From IMG/VR virus record IMGVR_UViG_3300021976_000019, positions 1 through 53,071 of that record: a stretch of DNA of 53,071 nucleotides; one strand, 5' to 3'. How positions within the stretch are numbered: the first letter of the stretch is position 1; every line of letters begins with the position of its first letter. Position numbers and translations under genes: made by a program. Below are positions 2,919-38,257 of this stretch, piece by piece. The notes beneath the pieces are model-generated. The model had not been told where the DNA came from. It did no database searches and saw only the letters and a program-made list of their open reading frames with translations. This stretch comes from a virus.

Positions 2919-3920
2919 TCAGGCCTTGACCGTGGCCACGACGATCTGCTCGGGGCGGGTCAGGACGGGAAGGGCCTGCTCCTCCAGGAGGTACTGGCGG
3001 GCGCTCGGGTCCTTCTCCTTCCAGGTCTTGGCGAAGCGACCGATGAAGTTGTCCGGCGCCTCGTCGTCAGCCGACGGACCGCGGACCAGCTCCAGCGGGT
3101 TGTTCTGGTTCAGCTCGGCGAAGAGCACCACGTTGTTCGGCAGGAAGCCCGTCGAGATGTGGGAACCGTCGGTCTGGCGGATGTCATACATCGTGTCGAC
3201 GACCCGCCAATCCATCCCCATGAAGCCGCGGAGGGTGCCGGACGCGAAGTACTCGTCCTTCATCCGATCGCTCATCAGGGAGATGCCATCACGAGTGAAG
3301 GAGGTGACGATGTAGTTCAGCGTGTCGCTGGTCGCGTACGCCGTCTTCACCTCGACATGGCCGTCGCGGAGGATGATCTTCTTCCACGCCTGGATGTTGG
3401 CCACGATCTCCTGCGGAGTGGCAACGTCCCACTCCTCGGCCGCGGTGACCTTGTGCGAAGCCGGGATCTTGTAGTCGATCGAGGCCTGCACGTCCGGAGA
3501 GTCGATGACCAGGGAGCCCTGGAGGCACTGCCAGAGTGCCCACTCCCAGAAGTTGTCGAATCGGGCGTTGAGGTCGCGAACCTCCTTGAGGACCTCTTCC
3601 TCAGCGTTGCGCAGGTTCTGGGCAGAACCTGGGGCCTTCAGCCAGTGGAGCGTGGTCGGCTTGAAGACCTTCTTCTCGCGGAGGTAGACGAGGTTCGCGC
3701 TCTCCATCGAGATACCGAGCCGCGGCACGACGTGCGCCTCGGAGTTCGGCACGTTCGGGGTCGCCATCGTCCGTGCACCGCGACGAACCTCCCACTGAAC
3801 GAACGGGTAAGGGGTGGTCCCCTTGGGCGTCCCGTTGAACAGCATCAGGTTCGCGGCTGGCGCGATCTTGGAGACGACGTTGCGAAAAACGTTCGGCTCC
3901 AGGAGGCTCGGCTCGGGCAT
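2919..3920 (-). CDS. Major capsid protein (lambda gpE-like)
   Basis: 333 residues; ATG preceded by AAGGAAGG. This forms the shell of the head. The sequence pattern is that of the lambda gpE capsid family. It has an N-terminal segment with TPYPFVQWEVRRG and a spine-helix region (NLRNAEEEVLKEVRDLNARFDNFWEWAL). A middle section carries DGISLMSDRMKDEY, and the protein closes with LPVLTRPEQIVVATVKA, whose T-R-P-(D/E) with following hydrophobic strand is typical of this family's C-terminus. The next gene upstream in transcription is a decoration-protein-like gene, and before that a protease/scaffold fusion, which is the standard order for lambda-type heads. Strong RBS and a downstream hairpin fit high expression. 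Confidence 0.85.
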   Translation of the reverse strand: MPEPSLLEPNVFRNVVSKIAPAANLMLFNGTPKGTTPYPFVQWEVRRGARTMATPNVPNSEAHVVPRLGISMESANLVYLREKKVFKPTTLHWLKAPGSAQNLRNAEEEVLKEVRDLNARFDNFWEWALWQCLQGSLVIDSPDVQASIDYKIPASHKVTAAEEWDVATPQEIVANIQAWKKIILRDGHVEVKTAYATSDTLNYIVTSFTRDGISLMSDRMKDEYFASGTLRGFMGMDWRVVDTMYDIRQTDGSHISTGFLPNNVVLFAELNQNNPLELVRGPSADDEAPDNFIGRFAKTWKEKDPSARQYLLEEQALPVLTRPEQIVVATVKA

Positions 3921-3962
3921 TTCGTTTCCTTCCTTTTCTGATCAGCGAAGCGAATGCCCGCT

Positions 3963-4352
3963 CTAGAACGAGATGTAGTCGAAACCCGGGATGTACTTAC
4001 CCTTGAGCGCGGTAGCCAGAGCCGCCGCGTTGGTGGCGGTGATCGCTGCAACCTTCGCGTTGATCACACCTCCGAAGAGCAAGTTGATCTGGTGGGCCTC
4101 GGCGGTGGCGTTGCACGCGGTCTCGTTGACGGCCGTGGCGTCGGCGAAAGCTGCCTTGACCCAGGTCTTCCCGTCGACGGAACGCTTCATCGGCTCACCC
4201 GCGCGGACGATTCCAACGCCTGCCAGAACCGTCCCGCCCTTCTTGAGCGGCGGGGGGTTGTAGGACGCGATGATCTCTTCCGGTGCGGTGACCACACGCT
4301 CCGGGCCCACACCAGGTGGCCGGAGGACATCACCCTCAAACTCGGCTGCCAT
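3963..4352 (-). CDS. Head decoration protein (lambda gpD-like)
   Basis: 129 residues with a clear RBS (AGGAGAGGAAG). The order of features matches lambda gpD-type trimeric decoration proteins. These are a loop-rich N-terminus, a GGTVLAGVGIVRAGEPMKRSVDGKTWVK-like strand pair (residues ~40-67), an Ala-rich middle with NLLFGG, then VINAKVAAIT. Such proteins bind the outside of the expanded capsid at three-fold positions and stabilise it after DNA packaging. It lies directly between the protease/scaffold and capsid genes, as in lambda-like heads. Confidence 0.7.
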   Translation of the reverse strand: MAAEFEGDVLRPPGVGPERVVTAPEEIIASYNPPPLKKGGTVLAGVGIVRAGEPMKRSVDGKTWVKAAFADATAVNETACNATAEAHQINLLFGGVINAKVAAITATNAAALATALKGKYIPGFDYISF

Positions 4353-4379
4353 GATTCTTCCTCTCCTGCTACTGGGGGG

Positions 4380-5423
4380 TTACTTCTTGTTGCCGTTGGC
4401 GATATCCGCCAGACGATCGATCTCGGCCTGCTGGGCCTCGCTCTGGCTGGACGTGTGAGTGGTCACGCCGTCCTCGGAGAGGGAGACGATCGGCTCCTCG
4501 GGGAGAAGCGCCTCGAACTGGTCACGGTTGCTGAGCGAAAGCTCCAGCATCGTGTCGCGCTGCTTGGGAAGGATGCGACCGGCATGCACCAGGTCATCGA
4601 TCTCCTTCTCGGCGTTCTTCCGGGTCAGCTCGACCACGGTCTCCTCCGAGGTGGAGAGCTTGCTGGACAGCTCGACCACCGCGTCGGCGACATCCTGGAG
4701 AGTCATCTCCTGGCCATCGGCGCCGAGCGCGTTGGACAGCGCGGTCAGATCCGCGGGCTCATCCTTCTTGGCCTGAAGAGCCTCAACATCGATGCCGTGC
4801 TCGTCCTTCAGGGCGGCGATCAACTCTTCCTTGGTCTTGGGCATCTCGTCCTCCAGGGGGTTCTCGGTCACCGCTCCGAGAAGAACGGTTTCTCCGGGAG
4901 TATCGGCGGAAGCCGCGATGACCTCTTCATAGCCGTCGAGGTTGGTGATGTAGGGCCGATTCGTCACTGCCATGTGCAGGAGAGTCGGGCCGACCTTCGC
5001 ACCGGTCTTGGTGTCGGTGTAGTCGAGGTTGAGCATCGCGGAGGCGCCGATCAGGGTCTTACCCAGCTGCTCGGCGTGCTCGGCGTTACGGGCGTCGAGG
5101 TAGGCGTAGACGCCCTTCCCCGCCTCGTAGTCGAGGTCGATCACCTGGCCGGTGTTTCGCAGTGGGTCCTCAGTGTGCTTGTTCTCGCCATCCACGATCG
5201 GGGCCTGGACGATGTCACACATGCCGTTGGAGAAGTTGGTCACCAGCTTCTCGGCGAAGTCCTCGTCGACGGTGATCTTCTTGCCAGGGAGCTTTGGGTG
5301 CTCGAAATCGCCGAAGTGGAGAATTTGCTTGCGGAACAGGCGTCCCTTGGGGGTGACGCCGTTGCGGCGCGCCAACTCGACGAAGCCTTCGTTGCCATCG
5401 CCCGCCATTACGACGTTGGTCAC
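4380..5423 (-). CDS. Prohead protease / scaffold fusion (Mu gpI-like)
   Basis: 347 residues from a GTG with an excellent RBS (CTAGGAGGTT). Residues ~1-160 resemble the Mu gpI-type maturation protease: a conserved beta-rich body, with LLHMAVTNRPYI near residues 148-159 corresponding to the family's LTN-P segment. Residues ~190-347 are a long, charged, helical region (KEELIAALKDEHGIDVEAL, VVELTRKNAEKEIDDLV) typical of a scaffolding domain. The protein would assemble inside the procapsid and then cleave itself and the scaffold. A CGCCGATACT motif lies 32 bases upstream of the start. Confidence 0.7.
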   Translation of the reverse strand: MTNVVMAGDGNEGFVELARRNGVTPKGRLFRKQILHFGDFEHPKLPGKKITVDEDFAEKLVTNFSNGMCDIVQAPIVDGENKHTEDPLRNTGQVIDLDYEAGKGVYAYLDARNAEHAEQLGKTLIGASAMLNLDYTDTKTGAKVGPTLLHMAVTNRPYITNLDGYEEVIAASADTPGETVLLGAVTENPLEDEMPKTKEELIAALKDEHGIDVEALQAKKDEPADLTALSNALGADGQEMTLQDVADAVVELSSKLSTSEETVVELTRKNAEKEIDDLVHAGRILPKQRDTMLELSLSNRDQFEALLPEEPIVSLSEDGVTTHTSSQSEAQQAEIDRLADIANGNKK

Positions 5424-5454
5424 GGGAACCTCCTAGATCGCTGTTCGATCCAGG

Positions 5455-5464
5455 AGTATCGGCG
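5455..5464 (-). promoter_or_regulatory. CGCCGATACT motif, copy 1
   Basis: Coding-strand CGCCGATACT in the short gap upstream of the protease/scaffold gene, 32 bases before its start. It abuts a small hairpin (GGCGC-CTT-GCGCC on the minus strand, 5461-5473). The same word recurs near other starts. GATACT could act as a -10 element, but no convincing -35 is visible. Confidence 0.35.
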
Positions 5465-5480
5465 CAAGGCGCCGCGGCGT

Positions 5481-5753
5481 TCAGATGGGCAGCTGGTCGG
5501 TGTCCCGCACGTCGTCCCAGGACCACACCGCGAGAGGGTTGGCTGAGCCCGCCAGCACATCAGTGATGTAGTTCCACTGAGCCGACTTGACCACCGACGT
5601 GGGAGTCAGGTTGAAGTTCAGAAGAACCGCTCGGGCTCCCTCGGGGTACTTGGACTCGTCAGCGTAGGCCGACCGCAGCACGCTCTGGTGGTGGACGAGC
5701 CACCAGATGCCCAGAACCTGGCCGTCGGCGCCGCGGTGCGTCAGGACCCTCAC
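5481..5753 (-). CDS. Hypothetical protein
   Basis: 90 residues, beginning at a GTG that overlaps the stop of the preceding gene by GTGA. Contains several Trp and Tyr residues (IWWLVHHQSVL, SAQWNYITDVL, LAVWSWDDVRD). No motif that I recognise. It lies between the giant 2641-residue gene plus its small partner and the protease gene, so it is presumably expressed with the head genes. Confidence 0.5.
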   Translation of the reverse strand: MRVLTHRGADGQVLGIWWLVHHQSVLRSAYADESKYPEGARAVLLNFNLTPTSVVKSAQWNYITDVLAGSANPLAVWSWDDVRDTDQLPI

Positions 5754-6091
5754 TCGTCCCCCTCAGAGCTGGCGATGATCTGCAGCCAGCGGTCGCGCCA
5801 TTCCTTCACGCTCGCACGGCCCTGGGGATTGCCGGAGCCGAGCGGGTAGAGAAACATCGCGTTGCCATCGGCGTCGGTGAGTTCCAAGCCGTCATCGCGC
5901 TTCTCGTAGCTGACGATGCGGACGGTCAACGGCATGGGGAAGTCGCCCGCGGGGAAGATCTCGGTGTCACCTTCAGCCGATTTGACCAGGAGATGGGCGG
6001 CCGGGTAGGACGATTCCTTGCGAGTGAACCTCGCCCCCGTGTCCTCCATGATCTTGTCGATCGCCGCCTGCAGGCCCATCAGCTCAGCCAC
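5750..6091 (-). CDS. Hypothetical protein following the giant gene
   Basis: 113 residues from a GTG inside the last codons of the 2641-residue gene. The middle has alternating strands (HLLVKSAEGDTEIFPAGDFPMPLTVRIVSYEKRDDGLELTD starts at about residue 34), and the end has a Trp-rich helix (VKEWRDRWLQIIASS). This looks like a compact alpha/beta domain. The tight coupling to the giant gene suggests that the two proteins work together, for example as a chaperone or co-packaged partner. That is inference only; I do not recognise the family. Confidence 0.5.
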   Translation of the reverse strand: MAELMGLQAAIDKIMEDTGARFTRKESSYPAAHLLVKSAEGDTEIFPAGDFPMPLTVRIVSYEKRDDGLELTDADGNAMFLYPLGSGNPQGRASVKEWRDRWLQIIASSEGDE

Positions 6092-9000
6092 TCTTCTTCA
6101 CCTCCGTGGTGCCCACCGGGACCCACTGCCCGTTGGCGCGCTTGATGTACTGCTTGCCTTCCCAGGTCTTCACCGTGCCGATCGCCGCTCCTCGATTCTT
6201 CTTCTGCAACTCCTGGGAGATCTTGGCGAAGTCCCAGACCTTGTCCAGCGTCTTCCGGACCTGTTCCTTGCCGTGGACGATCCGCTCTTCGATCGGAAGG
6301 CCCCGGATCTCGTTGACGCCACGGTCCTTGAAGAACTTGATCAACTGCTGGCGGGTGCCCTCATCGCCCGTCTTCACTACGGCGATGTCGTCGAAAAGAG
6401 AGGCTGAGTACTTGACCATCAGCTCATTGCTGGAGTTCTGGTAACCGCCTCCTCCTCCGGAGCCCTGGTTGTAGGAGTCCTCCAGGTCGAACGGAGCGTT
6501 CCCGGCCCGCTTGGAGGCGCGACCGTAACTGTCCTCGGCGAAGGCGTAGTTGGTGGTGCGAGCGAGCACATGTGGCTCCGCGTAGATGCCGCTGTAGCCC
6601 TGCTCGACACCCTGACGGAAGAACGCGAACTGGCCAGAGCCACCATCACGGTCCGAGTCGGGCGAGTTGGAGTCCTTGCCCCAGAGACCGGTGAACCGGA
6701 TCTTCTCCTCGTTGGCGGAGTAGACGCCCGCGGTCAGGTAGATCGAAGACCCATCCGTGCGCGAAGGTGTGAATCCTCCGTTGGCGTCTTTGGCCGTTTC
6801 CACGTCGAAGTCCGGTCGCATCCAGTACGGGCGGCCAGAGAGCGTGCTGTCGTTGCTGGACAGGTGGTTGCGGTGCTCGGAGAACTTTGGCGTCCAGTCG
6901 GCGTTGTCGACCGTCTCCTTGCCCCACCCCCCGGCGAAGGCCTCCCTGAGCTGCACAATTCGGGTGTCATCAGGAACGTTGGGGTCCAGCTGATTAATCG
7001 CATCACGGACCTTGGTCCACTTCGCCTTCAGCTTGCGACTGCCCAGCACCCCCGCCATCTGCTCCCAGTAGGTCCGCTCCAGCGAGGTCTCATCCGCGGG
7101 GGAGAGATCCACCCCCATGTCGCGGACCAGCTCCATTGCCTTGTCCATCTGGTCGGTGGAGCCATCCCAGTCCCGGACCTCAACCTGCAGCCGTCCGGCG
7201 TTGGTGAAGTTGCTGCCGTTGTCGGTCGCCGAATGCGGCGTGTAGTGCAACCGGACCCCAGGGTGGTCGGGAGAGGTGATCTCGTAGGAGTTGCTGCCGT
7301 ATGCAGCGGTGCTCAACTGGTCGGTGGAGTTGCCTTCGGCGTCGGCGCCGGAGGTGTGGGGCGTGCTGAACCCGGTCGCCACCACCTCGTACTTCTTGCC
7401 GGTGTGGTTGGTGACGGACTCCTGGGTGTCGGGCTTCTGCGCCGTCCAGCCAGAGGACTTCTTAGTGGACTCGTACAGGTCCTCCGTGACTGCCTTGTCA
7501 CTACTGTCAGTGAACCCCCAGTTGGAGTACTTACTCAGGGTTGACCCGTCCGGCCCGGTGATCGTTTCGACCACCTTGGGCTTGCCTTGGAGATCGATCC
7601 CCTTGGGTGGGTCGTACTTCGGCGCGGTCGACGGAACCTGAGGCGCGGCGGTGTAGGAGTTCATCGCCTCGGTGACCTTCTCGAAGTGCCCGATCATCTC
7701 CCCAGACCACCGCAGCCATGCCTGCTGCTCGTGCGGGGACTGGAAGGTCGGGACTCCGGCGCCACCTCCCTTCTGGACGAACATCGGGTCCTTGCTCAAC
7801 GAGTTCAGGATCGCGGCCTGGGTCAGCTTGAGGTCGTTCATCTGCTCGGTGGCGGTGTTGACCGTCGATTGGGTGTACTTGCCGTCGGCCGCGTGCACCG
7901 AGACAGTCTTGGCGAAGGCGACCAGGGCGTTCTGAGCGTTGGTGGTGTAGGTCAGCGTGCCGCCGTAGGTCGGCGTCGTGGCCGTGCTGGTCTTCGGCTT
8001 CTGAGCCTTGAGCCAGCTCTCCACGTCGGAGTCAGCCTGACCGCGGAGCTTCAGCTCACCGCGGAGAGTGTCGGTCTTCTTCGCGCTCTGAGTGGTGTAG
8101 AAGAACGCGTGTGCATCCTCGATCTGGTTGGAGGAGAAGAACAGCGACTTGCCGTAAGCCTTGTTCTGCTTGACCTCAGAAGCGAACTCTTCCGAAAGAT
8201 CGAGGTGGGCGTCCGTCTCGGTCTTGGAGGTCCGGAACGATGCGTCCTCGAACGGGAAGTCGTAGCCACCGTCGCTGTAGAGGTCCTCATAGAACTTGAG
8301 GAAGTCGTCGAAGGTGTCCTGCTTGCGCTGCATCGCGAGGTCGGTGAAAGTCTCGCGAGTCATCCCCGGTGGGTAGTAGGGCCGGTTCTTGAAGGCGAAT
8401 TCGAGGTTCTCACGCCAGGTGTCGTCGTGCCGGTTGGAAATGGCGTAGGCACGCTTCAGAGCAGCCTTGGCGACCTTGTCCAGGGTCTCCTTGTCGACCT
8501 TGCCCGCCTGGACCGACTTGTAGAAGTCCTCGTACCAGTTGGCTCCGAAGTTGCCCTTCAGGTAGTAGCCAACCTCCAGCTTGTCGCTACCCAGCGCCTT
8601 CCACGCCTGGCCCAAGTCAATCTTGACCACGTCGCCGTCCTTGGTCAGCAGGAACTGACCGGCGTGGGTGTCGTGGTTGGAGATGGCCCAATCGATCGTG
8701 TGCGAGGACATCGCCTCGACCAGCTGGTCCTCGGTCAGATCGGAGTAGCTCTTGCCGGTGAAGTCCGTGCTCGCATCGATCATCGACTGGACGTGGGAGT
8801 ACTCGCCGTCGATGTCGCGGACCGAGGATTGTGGGGTGTTCGGCATGAACAGCCGGGCGACCTCCATCGCCGCGTGCTCGGTGTCCGGCCGGAACGGGTC
8901 GAAGGGGTCAGGCTTCACCATGTAACGGATGCCATCAGCGTCGGTGTAGAACGCCTTCGGCCGCCCGCCTCCGAGATTCAGATACGGGATCTGGATCAGG

Positions 9001-29906: not shown

Positions 29907-29936
29907 AGCCTAGCCGTCTGTGTGTCGGATCGTCAA
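29907..29936 (-). promoter_or_regulatory. Sigma70-type promoter before the HAD gene
   Basis: TTGACG (29931-29936), 18-base spacer, TAGGCT (29907-29912). The -35 overlaps the stop codon of the release-factor gene and the start of the HAD gene is 37 bases downstream of the -10. Confidence 0.6.
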
Positions 29937-30560
29937 CTAACCAGGGAGCCGAGACGACCCTTCAGAGCCTGCTTCATGCTGGCGCTGCGACCGGGCCCGG
30001 AGACCTGGTCGCGCCAGGCCGTCCAGGTCCAGGATCGACCCTGCTCGAAGACCTCCTGGCGGCCTTGGTTGGCCCGCTGAGCGACGTTCTCGGCCTGTCG
30101 GCGACCCAGCTCCGTCTCCAGCCTGGTCCACGCCACACGGCGATTCTCATGCTGGGAGCGGGACTCCACCGCGGTGACCACCACACCGGTTGGCTTGTGG
30201 GTGAGCCGGACCGCAGAATCAGTCTTGTTCCGGTGCTGTCCACCCGGCCCGGTGTCGCGATAGGTGTGCACCAGCACGTCGCCCTTATCGAGCTGGAGAG
30301 ACTTCGGAGACTTCTCGTCCAGGGCGACCACGGTCACGATGCTGGAATGACGCCGCCCGCGCTTCTCGGTGTCAGGGACCCGCTGGATGCGGTGCGTCCC
30401 GGCCAGGGTTGCGAGGGAGCGGTCAAAGACGGTGGAGAACCAGGACCCGGCCGTCGACCTCGACGGGACGGCCGGAGAAGGTACTGATGGCGGAGGCCAG
30501 CTCGGCCGCGAACTGCTCAGCGTCCGCTCCGCCATCGCCTGCATGGATCTCCAGTCTCAT
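29933..30560 (-). CDS. Short peptide-chain release factor with a +1 programmed frameshift
   Basis: The first 45 codons start at ATG 30560 and encode MRLEIHAGDGGADAEQFAAE, which matches the class I release-factor segment around the conserved AGxGGxEA. They end at CTT TGA. A +1 shift at CTTTGAC joins them to the second frame, beginning DRSLATLAGTHRIQRVPDTEK and giving a 208-residue product. This includes the GGQ motif (GPGGQHRNKTDSAVR), which triggers peptidyl-tRNA hydrolysis, and a P-D-T tripeptide at the RF1 PxT stop-recognition position. Domain 1 of full-size RF1/RF2 is missing, so the size is close to PrfH-type rescue factors. Located 10 bases after the preceding gene. Without the shift, only a short peptide would be made. 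Confidence 0.8.
30297..30314 (+). repeat. Dispersed 15-mer AGACTTCGGAGACTT, copy 4
   Basis: Exact copy inside the release-factor gene, read as Lys-Ser-Pro-Lys-Ser. It lies between the stop-recognition region and the GGQ motif. Confidence 0.6.
30422..30428 (-). promoter_or_regulatory. Recoding site CTT-TGA-C (+1 frameshift)
   Basis: CTTTGAC with CTT in the P site and TGA next, the same heptamer as the bacterial prfB frameshift site. Homology to release factors continues from the zero frame upstream to the +1 frame downstream exactly across this site. The stimulatory Shine-Dalgarno-like AGGGGG found three bases upstream in E. coli prfB is not obvious here. Confidence 0.75.
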
Positions 30561-31134: not shown

Positions 31135-32073
31135 CTACAGGACCGACTCGATGATCTCGCGCAACTCAGCCTTAGCCCGTGGTGACAGCTCAGTGCTCTC
31201 AGCGTGGGCGATGACCTGCTCCATGCTGAGGCTGGTCAGGGAGACCTTGCCGACCGACTCCAGGAACTCGTCGAGCTTCTCCTCACGCTCCTGCTTCTGA
31301 GCCACCTCAGCCAGCCGGAAGACTTCCGCGGCCGGGCGATGCGGAACGTCCACCGAGGTGAATGGGCAACCAGTGGCGTCTGGATCGAACAGGGTGATCT
31401 TGGGCTCTCGCTTCAGCGTCTCCTCGTGCAAGGAGCCACGGGAGATCGCGCCGTTGTTGCAGACCCAGGCATCGTGGCTACGGAAGAACCCGTAGCTGTC
31501 GTGGATATGCCCCATAGCCACTGGGACGCCCTCCGTGACGATCTGAGAGGCGTCCAGGTGCGGGTACGGGGGATTGATGCCAGAGGGGAAAATCGCGGCG
31601 TGGACGGCGATCAAGGCCGGACGGGTCCCGACCAGGGTCTCGTCACAGGCCACGTTCATGTGCGTCTGGAGATCCTCCAGGTCATCGGTGTAGGGAATGC
31701 CGTAGATCCCAGTCTCGGTGTCCAGACCCTGCAGCAGGGTGATGTTCGAGCTGAGCGCCAGCGTGCCGAGCGGCTGAGTCGGGATGGACTCCAGCCGGTC
31801 CTGCTGCAGGTCATGGTTGCCGGGGACGATCAGGACCCGGCCGCGGAAGGCGGCGAGGATCTCCGCGGTCCGGCGAACTAGGCCGTGGCTCGTCCGATGT
31901 GGGACCTTCACGTGGAAAACGTCACCAAGTTGAGTGATTGACTCAGCATTCACCTGGTTGGCGTAGTCGACGATCCACTCCAGCTTGGTGAGGATGTCAT
32001 CGGAGTAATCATCGGTCCTCGAACTGGGTGGGTTGTCCGAAAGATGCAGATCGCCGACCAACACGTGCACCAT
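31135..32073 (-). CDS. SbcD/Mre11-like metallophosphoesterase
   Basis: 312 residues, start overlapping the HNH stop (TGATG). All calcineurin-like metal motifs are present in order: GDLHLSD (~7), LGDVFH (~49), PGNHDLQQ (~84), VHAAIFP (~154) and MGHIHDSYG (~186). The C-terminal ~90 residues form a helical region such as those used by SbcD to bind SbcC. The nuclease partner would be the split SbcC-like ATPase encoded at 37298-38257 and 25014-25646. Expected activity is DNA end and hairpin processing during replication or recombination. Confidence 0.8.
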   Translation of the reverse strand: MVHVLVGDLHLSDNPPSSRTDDYSDDILTKLEWIVDYANQVNAESITQLGDVFHVKVPHRTSHGLVRRTAEILAAFRGRVLIVPGNHDLQQDRLESIPTQPLGTLALSSNITLLQGLDTETGIYGIPYTDDLEDLQTHMNVACDETLVGTRPALIAVHAAIFPSGINPPYPHLDASQIVTEGVPVAMGHIHDSYGFFRSHDAWVCNNGAISRGSLHEETLKREPKITLFDPDATGCPFTSVDVPHRPAAEVFRLAEVAQKQEREEKLDEFLESVGKVSLTSLSMEQVIAHAESTELSPRAKAELREIIESVL

Positions 32074-32933: not shown

Positions 32934-34529
32934 CTAGATCCGTCCAGCCGAAAAATCGGCCAACAGCTGTGGCGCAGCGCTGTCGAGCCCGGCCAGGTCC
33001 ATCGATCCCGGATCGTTCGGATCGGCGATGGAGAACTTCGTTGCCGTCATCCCCCACACCACGTTCCGAGCCGGAATTCCGGTCTTGTCGCGGTACTTCT
33101 TCAGCGCCTGGTGCGGGTGGATTCCGCCGTACCACGTCTCGTTATCGGTCAGGGTCGAGAAAGTGTCAACCTCCAGCCCCTGACGAAGTGCCTCGACCAT
33201 TGGCAAAGCGCAGTCGGTTCCGGCGAACGGCAGGTTCGACACCGACCGGATCACATCGTCCAGCCGCTGGCGCGGGCTGATCGACAGCTCCCGGAAGGTG
33301 GTCGAGAAGCCGTAGACCGCGACCTCGGGCTCGGTGGCCACCGTGATCAGCGCCATCGCGGCCGAAGCCTCCCGCGGCGTAACCGGGCTGTCCGACATGT
33401 AGCTCGCCCCCATCGATCCTGAGACATCCAGGCCGATCAGGGTCCGCTTGTTGGCGGGCCGGACGTTGCCGAAGGACAGGTAGAACGCCTTGTCCAGCGC
33501 ATCAGCGATCTGCCGCACGGGAGCCCACGAGGTCTGGCCCCGGAAGCTCTGGCCCGACGCGTAGGTCCGCTGAGCGACCAGCACGTTGAACGGGTGCACC
33601 CGGCCCTTGGTCAGGTACTCCTGGTTGCCCAGCTGCTCGACGATCGCCGCCGTCCGGTTGCCCTTCTTCAGGCCGCTGGCCACGACCTCCAGCCGGGTCA
33701 GCCGCGGGAGCTGACGAATCAGCGCCGTCATTGGCAGACCCTGGTCGACCAGAGCCTCCCAGACCTTGCGCTCCTTGAGCGCCTCATCCGGCAGCATCTC
33801 CCAGCTCAGACCAAAGTCAGTGACCAGTCCAGCCCAGGTGTCGACCGTGGTCGCCTCCTGCGCCTTCAGGTAGCCGTGGACGATCCGTGGCAGGTTCTCC
33901 GAGACCGTGCCCTGGGTCACCCACTTGTAGAGCGCGTTGCGCTGCTCGTTGTCGGTCTTCGGGTGGAAGAGCCGAAGCAGGTCACGCTGGGTGAAACCTT
34001 CGCGGCTGCGGTACTTCACCAACTGGTAGGCCAGAGCGTCGGGACGCTTGACCTCGTACCAACGCCGAGCGGCCTTCTTCAGGCCGGTGCCACCGAGACC
34101 ACGGAACTGCTTGAGGTACTTGGCGAACATGGCGAAGTGCGTGCCGATGCGAAGGACTTCTGGCATGGCGTCGAAGGCGGCCTTGCGTCCGGCCTCGTTC
34201 TTCGAAGCCGCGGCTGCGGCGAGGGCGAAGATGGTGGCGTTCTGCTTGGGAGCGCGACCCTCGATCGAGATCTCCTTGATGATCTCCACCAGACGCTCGG
34301 GGCTGTGCTCGGCCCAGGCGAGGATCTCGGCTGCGTTCTCCTTGGTCAGTTCCTGCACGCCCTGGTAGAACGATGCGGCCGAACCGAGAATGAGGAACCG
34401 GCGGATGCGGTCCTCGGGCGAGATCTCAAAGACGAATCCGCCAGCGTTGTTCACGACCTGGCGAGGATCGGCCTGCTCGCGCTGAGGAGTCTGCCGGGTA
34501 CGGATGGCGGTGAGTGGATCGTTGGTCAT
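32934..34529 (-). CDS. rsr: TROVE-domain Ro60/Rsr RNA-binding protein
   Basis: 531 residues from the ATG at 34529 (GGAG upstream); the longer reading frame extends into the RNA array and was rejected. Length is that of Ro60 orthologs. The N-terminal ~300 residues form the HEAT-repeat ring of the TROVE domain (FVFEISPEDRIRRFLILGSAASFYQG begins it near residue 29). The C-terminal von Willebrand A domain has an intact metal site: GLDVSGSMGAS (DxSxS, ~363), FAGTDCALPM (Thr, ~438) and LTDNETWYGG (Asp, ~461). Ro60 binds misfolded RNA ends in its central hole and Y RNAs on its outer surface. Six Y-RNA-like units lie immediately upstream on the same strand, and the leader carries a copy of the motif. 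Confidence 0.9.
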   Translation of the reverse strand: MTNDPLTAIRTRQTPQREQADPRQVVNNAGGFVFEISPEDRIRRFLILGSAASFYQGVQELTKENAAEILAWAEHSPERLVEIIKEISIEGRAPKQNATIFALAAAAASKNEAGRKAAFDAMPEVLRIGTHFAMFAKYLKQFRGLGGTGLKKAARRWYEVKRPDALAYQLVKYRSREGFTQRDLLRLFHPKTDNEQRNALYKWVTQGTVSENLPRIVHGYLKAQEATTVDTWAGLVTDFGLSWEMLPDEALKERKVWEALVDQGLPMTALIRQLPRLTRLEVVASGLKKGNRTAAIVEQLGNQEYLTKGRVHPFNVLVAQRTYASGQSFRGQTSWAPVRQIADALDKAFYLSFGNVRPANKRTLIGLDVSGSMGASYMSDSPVTPREASAAMALITVATEPEVAVYGFSTTFRELSISPRQRLDDVIRSVSNLPFAGTDCALPMVEALRQGLEVDTFSTLTDNETWYGGIHPHQALKKYRDKTGIPARNVVWGMTATKFSIADPNDPGSMDLAGLDSAAPQLLADFSAGRI

Positions 34530-34579: not shown

Positions 34580-34730
34580 TGGGGGTCCCAGACAAGGGAG
34601 TGAGGACTCGAAATTTTACGGTTGCTCTACCACTGAGCTACGCGCCCGAAGTTGTCGGGCGGGCAGGATTCGAACCTGCGACCCACTGTTTCCTTGGTAA
34701 CGAATCTTCGTCGGTCTGGGGTTACACCCA
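34580..34730 (-). ncRNA. Y-RNA-like unit 6 with circularly permuted tRNA module
   Basis: Outer stem CCCAGAC / GTCTGGG with TGGG / CCCA beyond, followed inside by CGA opposite CTT. The interior contains a near-complete tRNA in permuted order. First comes the 3' side of an anticodon-like stem (34885 series not included; here 34685-34689, ACAGT), then a five-base variable loop, then a T arm GCAGG-TTCGAAT-CCTGC (34663-34679). A seven-pair acceptor-like stem follows, capped by the loop CAACT (34650-34654). Next is a D arm TAGCTCAGTGGTAGAGC, and finally ACCGT, which pairs with ACAGT at four of five positions. The open ends therefore leave through the anticodon stem, not the acceptor stem, as in bacterial YrlA-type Y RNAs. 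The last unit before the TROVE gene. Confidence 0.75.
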
Positions 34731-34880
34731 TCAGGAACTACAGACGAGGGGTTGCGTCCCGATCAAAGCTCTTTCGCGGAGGGATTCGAACCCCCGACAT
34801 CCGGAGGTTTAGGTCCGGCGTTCTGCCTCTGAACTATGCGAAAATAACGGAAAGTCGCTTCGGTCTGTAGATCCTGAAGG
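34727..34880 (-). ncRNA. Y-RNA-like unit 5 enclosing a tRNA-like element in normal order
   Basis: Outer stem of up to 20 positions (CAGGATCTACAGAC / GTCTGTAGTTCCTG at its core, one mismatch) followed by CGA and CTC (CTCGTC instead of CTTGTC). Unlike units 3 and 6, the interior holds a standard-order tRNA-like element (34771-34843). The extensive end pairing argues that this is one of the array units and not an independent tRNA gene. Confidence 0.65.
34771..34843 (-). tRNA. tRNA-like element with 8-nt anticodon loop
   Basis: Acceptor TTTCGCA / CGCGAAA (six of seven pairs), D arm GTTC-AGAGGCA-GAAC, anticodon stem CCGGA / TCCGG enclosing CCTAAACC, variable loop ATGTC, T arm GGGGG-TTCGAAT-CCCTC, discriminator G, no encoded CCA. 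The anticodon loop has eight bases instead of seven, so the anticodon is ambiguous (U33 before AAA would be the nearest reading). It may be a mimic and not a decoding tRNA, or a frameshift-suppressor-type tRNA. Confidence 0.55.
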
Positions 34881-34883
34881 ATG

Positions 34884-35012
34884 CACCTGAGAGGGAGAGA
34901 CAAGAGATGAGCAGTCGAGGTTCACCCCCGCCTACCAGGCTCTGAACCTGGCGGCCAGGGACTCTGTAATCACAGGGTTAACGACCGCTCCGCGGTCTCT
35001 CCTTCGAAGGTG
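34884..35012 (-). ncRNA. Y-RNA-like unit 4
   Basis: Outer stem GGAGAGAC / GTCTCTCC extended by CACCT / AGGTG, then CGC opposite CTT. The interior has a GACCGC-GGA-GCGGTC hairpin option, the shared GTTA, a CTGT-GATT-ACAG hairpin and a T-arm-like hairpin GCCAGG-TTCAGA-GCCTGG. A D arm and a capped acceptor stem are not clearly visible, so the tRNA-like module is degenerate or different. Confidence 0.6.
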
Positions 35013-35021
35013 AAGCACCCA

Positions 35022-35160
35022 TCAGGACCACCAGACAAAGGGGCGAGGACCCGAAATGCCGCTCTACCAGGTACTGCTGCGGCGAACACGGGAGCCTTGA
35101 CCACCGTATCGGATTCGAACCAATTAGTTAACGGATCGCTCATCGGTCTGGAAATCCTGA
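35022..35160 (-). ncRNA. Y-RNA-like unit 3 with permuted tRNA-like module
   Basis: Outer stem TCAGGATTTCCAGAC / GTCTGGTGGTCCTGA (15 positions, one mismatch) followed by CGA opposite TTT. Inside, in permuted order: T arm ATTGG-TTCGAAT-CCGAT (35108-35124), acceptor-like stem ACGGTGG / CTCCCGT with a six-base cap, and D-like arm GCCGC...GCGGC with a GG-containing loop. The 3' tail ATTTCGGGTCCTC closely matches that of unit 6 (ATTTCGAGTCCTC), so units 3 and 6 are probably duplicates. Confidence 0.7.
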
Positions 35161-35255
35161 AGGGTGGAGAGATGGAGACAAGGAAACGAATGCCGGGGAT
35201 TCTCTGCAATGGTAAGATAACCGACTTTCAGCGGTCTCCACCTCTCAACCTTCAG
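35157..35255 (-). ncRNA. Y-RNA-like unit 2 (short)
   Basis: Outer stem GAGAGGTGGAGAC / GTCTCCATCTCTC, extended by CTGAAGG / CC-C-TTCAG, then CGC opposite CTT. About 99 bases, the shortest unit, with no recognisable T or D arm. Its 3' part (CCCCGGCATTC...CCTTGTCTC) resembles unit 1. Its last four bases can alternatively pair in unit 3. Confidence 0.6.
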
Positions 35256-35257
35256 TT

Positions 35258-35379
35258 GCTAAGACAGAGACAAGGAATGCCAACCGGGGTTTAATCTGGG
35301 ACCACCCAACGACGGGATCGAACCGCCCGACTCTCATTCAAAGGGAGTTAACCGATTATGCTTCGGTCTCTGCTTCAGC
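35258..35379 (-). ncRNA. Y-RNA-like unit 1
   Basis: Outer stem GCTGAAGCAGAGAC / GTCTCTGTCTTAGC (14 positions, one mismatch) followed by CGA opposite CTT. Inside: CCGA...TCGG hairpin then GTTA, T arm GGCGG-TTCGATC-CCGTC, and a five-pair acceptor-like stem TTGGG / CCCAG capped by TGGT. A D arm is not obvious. The first unit after the promoter at 35414-35443. Confidence 0.65.
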
Positions 35380-35413
35380 GTTCACTGTTGAGTTGTTTGG
35401 TGGTGCAGACGTT

Positions 35414-35443
35414 ACTCTAGTACTGCCAGTTGTCAGGTGTCAA
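35414..35443 (-). promoter_or_regulatory. Promoter of the Y-RNA-like array
   Basis: Perfect -35 TTGACA (35438-35443), 18-base spacer, -10 TAGAGT (35414-35419). Transcription would begin near 35407, about 28 bases before the first unit, and read through all six units into the TROVE gene. The region 34530-35456 contains no protein gene; the RNA array fills it. Confidence 0.75.
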
Positions 35444-36192: not shown

Positions 36193-37242
36193 TCAGAAGT
36201 AGGGAAGCCAGCGGTTCCGCTCTCCGTCGGACTTGCAGATGTAGGTGTTCCCGTTCCGCGGGTCGAGGCCGCGCTTGCCGACATCAGAGGCCTTGCAGAA
36301 GGCACCACCACGGATCGGACCGTCGACCAGCTCGGGCTCCTTCTCCGGCTTGGGCTCCTTGGTCTTCTTCGGCTTGGGTGCGGACTCCTCGGTGTCAGAG
36401 TCCGGATCGGGAACCTTGGCATCATCCGCGGTTGGCGGACGCTGGCCCTCACACCCGCCCAGGATCTCAGCCATCTTGTCGTGCTCGGCCTTGGTAACCC
36501 ACAGCTCGAACTCGGCCTTCACCGCGATCTGTCGGGATACGTAATCACAACGGATGCCCTTCGCCGGGGGAAGCCACGTGGCGGCGTCTCCGTCGCCCTT
36601 GGACGCGTTGGTAGGGCCGTCGACGGCGAGCAGGTTCAGGAACGAGTTAGCGAACTCCTCACGCCTGCCCTCGTCCCACTGCTGAGCGCCCTTCTGCCAG
36701 GCATCAGAGAGGGCCACCACGTGATCGATCTGGACCTCGCTGGCGTCGGCCTTCTCGAAGTCGATCTCCTCACCTGTGTACGGGTCCTTCAGCGTGCCCT
36801 CGATCACGACGCAGCCGTCAGAGTTGTATCGCGTGACGATGTCAGTCAGGTCCCGGCGGAGCACATCATCACGCTGCCCACAGCCGTTGCGGTCGATGTC
36901 CTTCCAGCTCTGACCGAACTCGTTCCGATCGTAACCAGTCTTCGGGGCGCGTCCCTTGACCTCAAGGCTCGCCAGCTGTGCCAACGAAGTGCCGGGCTCA
37001 GGATCAGGCTCCGTCGGTGTAGGAGTTGGTGTCGCGCTAGGAGCCGCGATGGTCTCTGTGGGCGTCGGCGTGGGAGTAGGCGCCGCGGAGATGGTCGTCA
37101 CAGGCGCGTTCGAAGTCAACGAACCGATCACGAGGGCGGTACACCCCCCGAACAAGAGCAGCAGAGCCCCACCAACCACGACCAGAACGATCAGCCAAGT
37201 GGGCCACTTATTCTTGGGCGGAGCCGGGACAGGGTGCGACAT
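36193..37242 (-). CDS. Membrane-anchored HNH (DUF1524-like) nuclease-domain protein
   Basis: 349 residues from ATG 37242 (AAAGGAG upstream; the longer frame is rejected). A hydrophobic segment at ~14-38 (WLIVLVVVGGALLLLFGGC) anchors the protein. A Thr/Pro/Glu linker follows. Residues ~120-260 are the DUF1524/HNH nuclease domain: YDRNEFGQSWKDIDRNGCGQRDDVL, SEVQIDHVVALSDAW (IDHxVxL, ~195) and NLLAVDGPTNASKGDGDAATWLPP (Asn, ~225-248). The C-terminus has GAFCKASDVGKRGLD with two Cys. It would act outside the cytoplasmic membrane or in the envelope, perhaps against incoming foreign DNA; that role is inference. Downstream terminator ends the transcript. Confidence 0.75.
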   Translation of the reverse strand: MSHPVPAPPKNKWPTWLIVLVVVGGALLLLFGGCTALVIGSLTSNAPVTTISAAPTPTPTPTETIAAPSATPTPTPTEPDPEPGTSLAQLASLEVKGRAPKTGYDRNEFGQSWKDIDRNGCGQRDDVLRRDLTDIVTRYNSDGCVVIEGTLKDPYTGEEIDFEKADASEVQIDHVVALSDAWQKGAQQWDEGRREEFANSFLNLLAVDGPTNASKGDGDAATWLPPAKGIRCDYVSRQIAVKAEFELWVTKAEHDKMAEILGGCEGQRPPTADDAKVPDPDSDTEESAPKPKKTKEPKPEKEPELVDGPIRGGAFCKASDVGKRGLDPRNGNTYICKSDGERNRWLPYF

Positions 37243-37285
37243 GGATTGGTCTCCTTTGGGTGGTGTCGCTCTCTGCGACTCCAAA

Positions 37286-37315
37286 AGGATGACATATCTA
37301 GTTTCGGTGTGTCAA
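37286..37315 (-). promoter_or_regulatory. Promoter-like block B
   Basis: TTGACA (37310-37315), 18-base spacer, CATCCT (37286-37291). The TTGACA overlaps the last codons of the SbcC-like N-terminal half. Shares TTGACAMACCGAAAYTAGA with block A. Confidence 0.5.
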
Positions 37316-38257
37316 GTCCGACGTGTCGGCTCCGCAGACTGGGCACTTCCCCGCGGCCCGCAGGTGCTCGTCGTACTCAATCTCCATCACCGCGATCTGC
37401 TCCTTGAGGCTCCGCACGGTGCCAGCCTGCTCCTGGATCGACCGCTTCAAGCTCTGGGCTGAGCTACGGGCCAGCTCGACCTTCTTCAGCACGGCGTTCA
37501 AGATCACGACCTCTTCCAGCAGCTTCGACACGTCAGGGGGCTCCACGGCTTCCAGCTCAGCCAGCGCGGTGCTGGCCTTCGCGATCTCTCCTACGGTACG
37601 CCGAAGACTTCGGAGACTTTCCTCCAGCTGCGACAACTCAGCCAGCTGCTCCTCCGCGGCGATGACCTGTTTCTTGCGGGCCGGGAGGTCGGCGAACTCC
37701 TTGATCCGGCCACGGTAGGACTCCACATCGACCTTGCGGACCCGGAGGGTGGAGGAGGCTTCACCACGGCGCCGGTTGGCCTCTCTGACGGCGGCGTGCA
37801 GCAGGGAGACGTTGGTGAGGGAGCCGATCACCTGAGCGGCCTGAGAGCCTGTCTCGGCCAGCAGGAAGGGTCTGTCGAACTGGAAGCTGAAGGTCACGTC
37901 GGTGTCGGCGATGAGGGGAACTCGTGCGATTTTCGCAACACCGTCCGGAACCGTCCGGCCGGACTTAGTGAAGGTCTCCTCGGTCTCGCCGTTGATCAGA
38001 CGGTAGGTACTCAGTGACTTCCCACGCTCGATCCGCACCGTGGGCCCGTCGTCGAACTCCACGTCGATCACAGCCTTGGCCGACCCCTGGCGGACGTTGG
38101 CCGGGACGATCGTGTTCCGCAGGCACGCGCGCAGGGCGCGCAGGAAGGCACTCTTACCGCTGCTGCTTCTGCCTACCAGGACCGTAAAAGATCCGAACGA
38201 GACCTTGGCGTCCTTGATCGACTGGAAGTCGCGGACGTGCGCTGATGAAACCTTCAC
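37298..38257 (-). CDS. SbcC/Rad50-like ATPase, N-terminal half with zinc-hook motif
   Basis: 319 residues from GTG. Opens MKVSSAHVRDFQSIKDAKVSFGSFTVLVGRSSSGKSAFLR: an SMC-like N-lobe with Walker A GRSSSGKS (~29-36). Residues ~165-300 are coiled coil, ending in CPVCGADTSDL (~306), a CxxC zinc hook. The protein stops there, lacking the second coiled coil and the Walker B/signature lobe, which are encoded by the separate gene at 25014-25646. In normal SbcC the hook lies in the middle of the chain, so this is a split version. One 15-mer repeat copy lies inside. Partner SbcD-like nuclease at 31135-32073. Confidence 0.75.
   Translation of the reverse strand: MKVSSAHVRDFQSIKDAKVSFGSFTVLVGRSSSGKSAFLRALRACLRNTIVPANVRQGSAKAVIDVEFDDGPTVRIERGKSLSTYRLINGETEETFTKSGRTVPDGVAKIARVPLIADTDVTFSFQFDRPFLLAETGSQAAQVIGSLTNVSLLHAAVREANRRRGEASSTLRVRKVDVESYRGRIKEFADLPARKKQVIAAEEQLAELSQLEESLRSLRRTVGEIAKASTALAELEAVEPPDVSKLLEEVVILNAVLKKVELARSSAQSLKRSIQEQAGTVRSLKEQIAVMEIEYDEHLRAAGKCPVCGADTSDLTHRN
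37602..37621 (+). repeat. Dispersed 15-mer AGACTTCGGAGACTT, copy 5
   Basis: Exact copy inside the SbcC-like N-terminal half, read as Ser-Leu-Arg-Ser-Leu, a third reading frame. Confidence 0.6.

What the first reader, a model, noticed from the sequence alone, without database searches (positions are those of the whole stretch)
34580..35443. Tandem array of six Y-RNA-like noncoding RNAs next to a phage Ro60 (TROVE) gene
Six consecutive units on the minus strand share one plan. A 7-20 bp stem formed by the unit's own ends closes with AGAC / GTCT, and inside it lies CG(A/C) opposite CTT (CTC in unit 5, TTT in unit 3). Stem sequences differ between units but always pair, which is covariation-like evidence of structure. 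From memory, the Ro60-binding site of Y RNAs has GUCCGA opposite CUUGAC; here it is GACCGA opposite CUUGUC. A near-consensus promoter precedes the array and the TROVE gene follows it. Known bacterial and phage Rsr loci usually have one or two Y RNAs, so a six-copy array would be new to me. It could let Ro60 carry several different tRNA-like gates or cargo adaptors.
Basis: partly seen in the sequence, partly recalled or inferred. Interest (0 to 1): 0.95.

Follow-up and report, generated by a model that had tools for sequence, protein, structure and literature searches.

The report
Six Y RNAs beside phage Ro60
This uncultivated phage carries, just in front of its gene for the RNA-binding protein Ro60, six small RNA genes of the Y RNA type that share one Ro60-binding handle but carry different, often tRNA-like, heads; similar multi-copy sets turn out to be common but mostly unannotated in phages and bacteria that have Ro60.

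Summary
The array is real. A structure-aware scan finds only these six on either strand of the 53 kb window (scores 19.9-24.8; chance about 0.003 per 10 kb per strand at 20). A covariance model trained only on other loci finds all six full-length (E 6e-17 to 4e-4) and nothing else significant. The gene 57 nt downstream encodes a full-length Ro60/Rsr protein.

The reading as Y RNAs (YrlA/Deinococcus type) is well supported by sequence; transcription and Rsr binding are untested. u6 and u3 carry circularly permuted tRNA-like heads, u1 and u4 reduced ones, u5 a complete normal-order tRNA, u2 none.

The copy-number novelty is weaker than claimed: 57 of 82 viral and 58 of 80 bacterial Ro loci surveyed carry such units, often 3-7, up to about 9 in one bacterial MAG. 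Six is high, not unique. Most likely the phage Ro is loaded with interchangeable Y RNA adaptors that gate it and tether RNA-decay or tRNA-handling partners; this is inferred, not shown.

The parts
35414..35443 (-). promoter-like site TTGACA-18-TAGAGT upstream of the array
   Evidence: 10/12 matches, 0.4 expected by chance
35261..35375 (-). u1: Y RNA unit, 64-nt head with hairpin, T arm and short capped acceptor-like hairpin, no D arm (reduced permuted type)
   Evidence: model R2 E 1e-6
35170..35243 (-). u2: minimal Y RNA unit, 24-nt head; outer stem extends further, to about 20 bp (about 35255-35157)
   Evidence: model R1 E 1.6e-7
35026..35156 (-). u3: Y RNA unit with permuted tRNA-like head (T arm, acceptor-like hairpin, D-like arm)
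   Evidence: model R2 E 7e-6
34891..35005 (-). u4: Y RNA unit, 64-nt head with hairpin and T-like arm (reduced)
   Evidence: score 24.8; model R2 E 5e-6, filters off
34735..34873 (-). u5: Y RNA unit whose head is a normal-order tRNA (34844-34770), Deinococcus Y RNA type
   Evidence: (RF01053 E 1e-3); model R2 E 0.02 whole window, 3.5e-4 filters off
34587..34720 (-). u6: Y RNA unit with full permuted tRNA head (T arm, acceptor capped by CAACT, D arm), YrlA type
   Evidence: (RF02553 E 1.7e-5); model R2 78.5 bits, E 3e-15
32934..34529 (-). Ro60/Rsr protein gene (TROVE + vWA), 531 aa
   Evidence: (2NVO 3e-112)

Best explanation
The region is a tandem array of six Y RNA genes, probably transcribed together from the promoter-like site at 35443, possibly reading on into the phage Ro60/Rsr gene. 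Each unit folds into an outer stem, an asymmetric internal loop (CGA or CGC facing CTT-like) and an inner stem capped by TTA; this is the handle that Ro grips. Each carries its own head: permuted tRNA (u3, u6), reduced permuted tRNA (u1, u4), normal-order tRNA (u5), or almost nothing (u2). The phage Rsr would bind one Y RNA at a time: the handle stabilises the RNA and covers part of the outer surface of the Rsr ring (gate), while the head acts as a tether, tRNA-like heads recruiting host PNPase or tRNA-handling enzymes, minimal Y RNAs occupying Rsr without a tether. The phage thus makes a population of Ro particles with different partners, to redirect structured-RNA or tRNA decay during infection. 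Shown by sequence: the handles, the head types, the Rsr gene, and recurrence of the arrangement elsewhere. Inferred: transcription and processing, Rsr binding, gating, tethering, any benefit to the phage. I put the identity as Y RNAs at about 0.95 and this tether/gate mechanism at about 0.5; the figure below is for the statement as a whole.
For: Six units and nothing else in the window. Models built without window sequences recover all six. Matches to YrlA and Deinococcus Y RNA models. Permuted-tRNA test, 0 of 200 shuffles. Full-length Rsr next door, with the Y-RNA contact histidine (H187 in human and mouse, PMC4030889) at H189 and K172, R176 invariant in 22 Ro proteins of phages and virus contigs. 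The same arrangement in 57/82 viral and 58/80 bacterial Ro loci. Covariation in 42 minimal units of other loci (those units were chosen by pairing). YrlA stem binds Rsr, its tRNA-like domain binds PNPase and is modified by DusA and TruB (PMC8394870). In a Listeria phage the Rsr-like protein is in virions and early, highly transcribed RNAs upstream of its gene were guessed to be Y RNAs (PMC12282133).
Against: No transcript or binding data for this phage. Rfam scores of u5 and u6 stay below the curated cut-offs of the Y RNA families and u1-u4 have no Y family match at E 5. The Rsr hit is below the NCBIfam equivalog cut-off (486 of 900 bits). Mixed short and long heads per viral array are no commoner than random assortment (40 against 39.4 loci), so head diversity is not itself evidence of function. 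No PNPase gene was noticed in the window (only part of it was annotated), so any nuclease partner would have to come from the host.
Confidence: 0.65

Rival explanations
1. Same Y RNAs, different purpose: the tRNA-like heads are decoys that soak up host tRNA-cleaving defence enzymes or other tRNA-binding proteins, with Rsr acting mainly as a stabiliser.
For: Heads carry tRNA T and D arms; u5 keeps a whole tRNA with an anticodon arm. The Wolin group raised competitive inhibition of an anticodon nuclease by YrlA as a possibility (PMC7790460).
Against: The permuted heads lack an anticodon arm, its place being taken by the Ro handle; u2 and the minimal class (142 of 341 units) have no tRNA part at all.
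Confidence: 0.15
2. Dosage or drift: only one or two units work, and the others are duplicated copies kept for RNA dose or decaying.
For: Direct repeats at 283-291 nt spacing point to block duplication u3-u4 to u5-u6; u1 and u4 have reduced heads; heads share only 23-67% identity; short and long heads assort as if at random.
Against: The handle is intact in all six (outer AGAC/GTCT, inner 5/5 pairs, TTA), and arrays of similar size recur in unrelated loci.
Confidence: 0.17
3. The region is a decayed phage tRNA cluster and the stems are incidental.
For: One unit is called a tRNA by standard tools, and T-arm-like sequences occur in several units.
Against: Six handle hits within 0.8 kb and none elsewhere; permuted arm order in u3 and u6; u2 has no tRNA part yet fits the minimal Y model; the Ro gene is adjacent.
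Confidence: 0.02

Closest known systems
YrlA (Rfam RF02553), as in the Salmonella rsr-yrlBA-rtcBA operon
   Same: Basal stem plus T arm, capped acceptor, D arm in permuted order; u6 matches the model over its full length (E 1.7e-5); adjacent to rsr.
   Different: Six units instead of two; no rtcBA seen beside it; scores below the family cut-off; heads of several kinds.
Deinococcus radiodurans Y RNA (Rfam RF01053)
   Same: u5 matches end to end (E 1e-3), with tRNA-like arms in normal order inside the Y stem (reading of the model layout).
   Different: u5 is a near-complete tRNA (49 bits) and stands among permuted types in one array; score below cut-off.
Y RNA units of actinophage Ro loci (BearBQ, Mareelih, McWolfish, FuzzBuster; unannotated)
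   Same: Same handle plan and same mix of permuted and minimal units next to a Ro-like gene.
   Different: Many use CGG...CAC instead of CGA/CGC...CTT in the internal loop, and most arrays are shorter.
Nematode sRNA RF01656 (that it belongs to the stem-bulge RNAs, relatives of animal Y RNAs, is from memory)
   Same: Same two-stem handle with CCGGA, UUAUC and CUUG; reaches its cut-off on minimal units of a viral (L111) and a bacterial (L155) Ro locus.
   Different: No window unit itself matches RF00019 or RF01656.

Membership tests
Bacterial/phage Y RNA | Stem made by the two ends, asymmetric internal loop, second stem (Ro-binding handle) | tested here: met
   All six units
Bacterial/phage Y RNA | Encoded next to a Ro60/Rsr gene | tested here: met
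   57 nt upstream of a full-length Rsr gene
Bacterial/phage Y RNA | Bound by Ro60/Rsr | not testable with these tools
   Only indirect: Y-contact histidine at H189, K172 and R176 kept
Bacterial/phage Y RNA | Expressed as small RNAs | not testable with these tools
   Promoter-like site only
YrlA (RF02553) | Permuted T arm, acceptor, D arm module | tested here: met
   Met for u6 and u3 (R2); u1 and u4 reduced, u2 lacks it, u5 is in normal order
YrlA (RF02553) | Rfam gathering score 69 bits | tested here: not met
   u6 34.2 bits; many phage and bacterial units in my survey also fall short
Deinococcus Y RNA (RF01053) | Rfam gathering score 80 bits | tested here: not met
   u5 32.4 bits
Ro60/Rsr protein | TROVE plus vWA domains over full length | tested here: met
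   2NVO 3e-112 residues 6-530; Pfam TROVE and vWA_Ro60
Ro60/Rsr protein | NCBIfam NF041674 equivalog cut-off (900 bits) | tested here: not met
   486.6 bits, E 8e-146, matched over the full profile
Functional tRNA (u5) | Seven-base anticodon loop and readable anticodon | tested here: not met
   8-nt loop CCTAAACC, anticodon undetermined; no encoded CCA

The most novel reading that the evidence does not exclude
Phage Ro60 loci are modular adaptor systems: one ring protein is programmed by a tandem set of Y RNAs whose equivalent handles present different captured tRNA-derived heads, including a nearly intact normal-order tRNA, each recruiting a different host RNA-processing enzyme during infection.
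Probability: 0.25. Interest if true: 0.85.

Novelty: new variant of a known kind. Interest (0 to 1): 0.6.

Why it matters
To my knowledge it is not known what phages do with Ro60. The locus shows that Ro-linked Y RNAs come as expanded arrays with diverse heads in phages and bacteria: 36 of 82 viral Ro loci surveyed have three or more units, and at least some are annotated as small hypothetical proteins or left blank. Two questions become testable in cultivated actinophages: does one Ro ring use many Y RNAs, and do different heads bring different enzymes? In a Listeria phage an Rsr-like protein was found in virions, and early, highly transcribed RNAs upstream of its gene were guessed to be Y RNAs (PMC12282133), so expression at the right time is plausible. 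The normal-order tRNA inside u5, beside permuted ones, also gives a lead on how tRNA mimics are acquired.

Tried and rejected
(1) Rfam at curated cut-offs finds only the tRNA in u5; a relaxed search was needed. (2) Single-sequence folding gives z-scores of only -0.2 (u3) and -0.4 (u5). (3) Model R1 from minimal units cannot reach units with long heads, hence R2. (4) The strict scanner (CGA/CGC...CTT-like) missed named actinophages because many use CGG...CAC; it was relaxed. (5) Listeria phage P100: the presumed Rsr (gp165) gave no Y hits nearby with the first scanner; its Y RNAs, if any, follow another plan. (6) Selection for mixed heads: not supported, 40 against 39.4 expected. (7) MAFFT alignment A2 put inner stems out of register and was not used for a model. 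(8) Chen 2014 and Wolin 2013 are not held in the library, so how many Y RNAs per locus they reported could not be checked. (9) One unit flagged normal-order, L092 1285-1430, is probably a chance stem round a tRNA and is not relied on. (10) A structure prediction of the protein was not run; the full-length sequence match to 2NVO made it unnecessary.

Full report
What was checked. On the minus strand, between a 198-aa ORF (ends 35457) and the Ro60 gene (ATG 34529), lies about 0.93 kb with no convincing protein gene. Reading it and scanning it confirms six units, u1-u6, with CGA/CTT positions 35365/35274, 35233/35182, 35145/35039, 34994/34904, 34862/34748 and 34713/34596. Each has an outer stem whose four innermost pairs are always AGAC/GTCT and whose next four pairs vary and mostly compensate. 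Each also has an inner stem ending at TTA and a 7-9 nt 3' strand of the internal loop ending CTT, TTT or CTC.

Chance. With a scanner that asks for outer stem, CG(A/C), inner stem, TTA and a CTT-like 3' loop, only these six are found on either strand of the 53 kb window. The false-positive rate on 360 Mb of simulated sequence is 0.0027 per 10 kb per strand at score 20; the six score 19.9-24.8. Swapping 3' halves among the units destroys pairing (2/720 and 1/720 permutations reach the true value). Because units were selected by pairing, independent models were also made: R1 from 42 minimal units (A3) and R2 from 30 permuted-type units (A4), none from the window. RNAalifold on A4, unprompted, gave the outer stem, inner stem, T arm, acceptor and D arm. 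R2 then found u6 (78.5 bits, 3e-15), u1 (1e-6), u3 (7e-6) and u5 (0.02) across the whole window, and all six with filters off in a 1 kb search (E 6e-17 to 3.5e-4) with nothing else below 1. R1 found u2 (1.6e-7).

Heads. u6 reads T arm, 7-bp acceptor capped by CAACT, D arm: a circularly permuted tRNA as in YrlA (Rfam RF02553, E 1.7e-5). Rotating the head and inserting a placeholder anticodon arm makes u6 and u3 ARAGORN tRNAs at the default threshold with 22-23 cut positions; 0 of 200 shuffles of each did so. u5 is the opposite: a tRNA in normal order (49 bits) inside the handle, resembling Deinococcus Y RNA (RF01053, E 1e-3), but with an 8-nt anticodon loop and undetermined anticodon, so unlikely to decode. 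u1 keeps a hairpin, a T arm and a short capped acceptor-like hairpin; u4 keeps a hairpin and a T-like arm; u2 has only a 24-nt loop. Of 341 units in the survey, window included, 72 have permuted heads, 142 are minimal and only 3 were flagged normal-order: window u5, L156 (Minicystis), and L092, which is doubtful. L132 also has a tRNA match inside a unit. Direct repeats suggest that the array grew by block duplication, u3-u4 to u5-u6.

The protein. The 531-aa product aligns end to end with D. radiodurans Rsr (2NVO, 3e-112) and human RO60 (7e-94), with Pfam TROVE and vWA_Ro60. H187, the conserved Y-RNA-contact histidine of human and mouse Ro60 (PMC4030889), falls on H189 in that alignment; K172 and R176 are invariant among 22 Ro proteins from phages and virus contigs (that their counterparts K170 and R174 contact Y RNA is from memory). 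The closest relative among the listed phage records is Gordonia phage BearBQ at 54.5% identity; 352 phage records carry a relative. The window is an IMG/VR virus record with no close relative in the phage records for the parts tested.

How unusual is six? Ro loci were fetched from IMG/VR (82 distinct), named phages (10) and bacterial genomes (80). With the general scanner at 19.5 (chance about 0.03 per 10 kb per strand, interpolated), 57/82, 7/10 and 58/80 loci have at least one unit; antisense controls gave 0, 0 and 5 hits. Viral counts run 1:10, 2:11, 3:15, 4:11, 5:5, 6:3, 7:2. R2 confirms large sets: at least 7 in L036, 8 in L017, 9 in L132 (an Anaerolineae MAG) and 6 in Gordonia phage Mareelih among its tRNAs and tmRNA, and it also finds units in Farewell, Teutsch and Pumpernickel that the scanner missed. 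So multi-Y arrays are the rule in this sample, and six is high but not unique. These loci are the best matches to one query, not a random sample of Ro loci.

Literature. What I could read describes a Salmonella rsr-yrlBA operon with two Y RNAs (PMC7790460), reports that mycobacteriophage Y RNAs have been identified (PMC12282133, citing Chen 2014), and guesses at Y RNAs in a Listeria phage (PMC12282133). The key papers (Chen 2014, Wolin 2013) are not held, so prior reports of arrays cannot be excluded.

Wider kinship. Minimal units match a Rfam model of a nematode RNA (RF01656) at or above its cut-off in a viral (L111) and a bacterial (L155) locus, with the same CCGGA / UUAUC / CUUG layout. This supports one shared handle plan across phage, bacterial and animal Ro RNAs.

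Mechanism. Established for relatives: Rsr binds the basal stem of Y RNA; the tRNA-like domain binds PNPase (RYPER); DusA and TruB act on YrlA (PMC8394870); Y RNAs lie on the outer surface of the Ro ring, partly overlapping the site for misfolded RNAs (PMC4030889). Inferred here: the phage Rsr is loaded with any of six Y RNAs; the handle is conserved and the head varies, so the head sets the partner. Not shown: transcription, processing, binding, partners, benefit. Mixed head types per viral array match random assortment, so diversity of heads is not itself proof of function. Rivals: decoys for tRNA-cleaving or tRNA-binding host enzymes; dosage or drift; a decayed tRNA cluster (rejected).

Verdict. 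Observation confirmed; interpretation right in kind, overstated in rarity. New variant of a known kind; interest 0.6.

Noticed in passing
L025 2604-2931 (Mycobacterium phage McWolfish MK112548, about 128221-128548): Three predicted Y RNA units overlap two annotated small hypothetical proteins (genes 228 and 229); those ORFs are probably spurious, and the same may hold in the many related cluster C phages.
   Followed up: partly
window 34579-34547 (-): A hairpin GTCTGCG...CGTAGAC flanked outside by CTT and CGA (an inside-out Ro-type site) sits just before the TROVE start codon; possible autoregulatory site or chance.
   Followed up: no
window 29933-30544 (-): Truncated release-factor-like protein with an RF-1 domain (closest to RF1/RF2; PrfH 80 bits, below cut-off), about 2.4 kb from the Ro gene; PrfH-like factors belong to RNA-repair themes elsewhere (from memory).
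   Followed up: partly
window 31135-32073 and 37298-38257 (-): SbcD/Mre11-like phosphoesterase and Rad50/SbcC-like ATPase lie on either side of the Ro locus.
   Followed up: partly
window 36193-37284 (-): Protein with a GmrSD_C/HNH nuclease domain and a long low-complexity N-terminal part.
   Followed up: no
one search hits H5-H9 (matching window u6): Unannotated stretches of Arthrobacter phage Atuin, Klebsiella phage KP2025, Xanthomonas phage 10KY502B and Ruegeria phage vB_RpoP-V13 match the permuted tRNA head of u6 at 77-85%; probably further YrlA-like RNAs.
   Followed up: no
L132 (Anaerolineae MAG, JAIOHM010000230) 3263-6450: Nine full-length model hits on both sides of a bacterial rsr gene, the largest set seen.
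   Followed up: partly
L021 about 2720, L035 about 3600, L039 about 3640: Related loci share a palindrome-like element close to TGTAAYGCGTTACAGT just upstream of the Y array (possible operator-promoter, seen by eye); not seen in the window.
   Followed up: no
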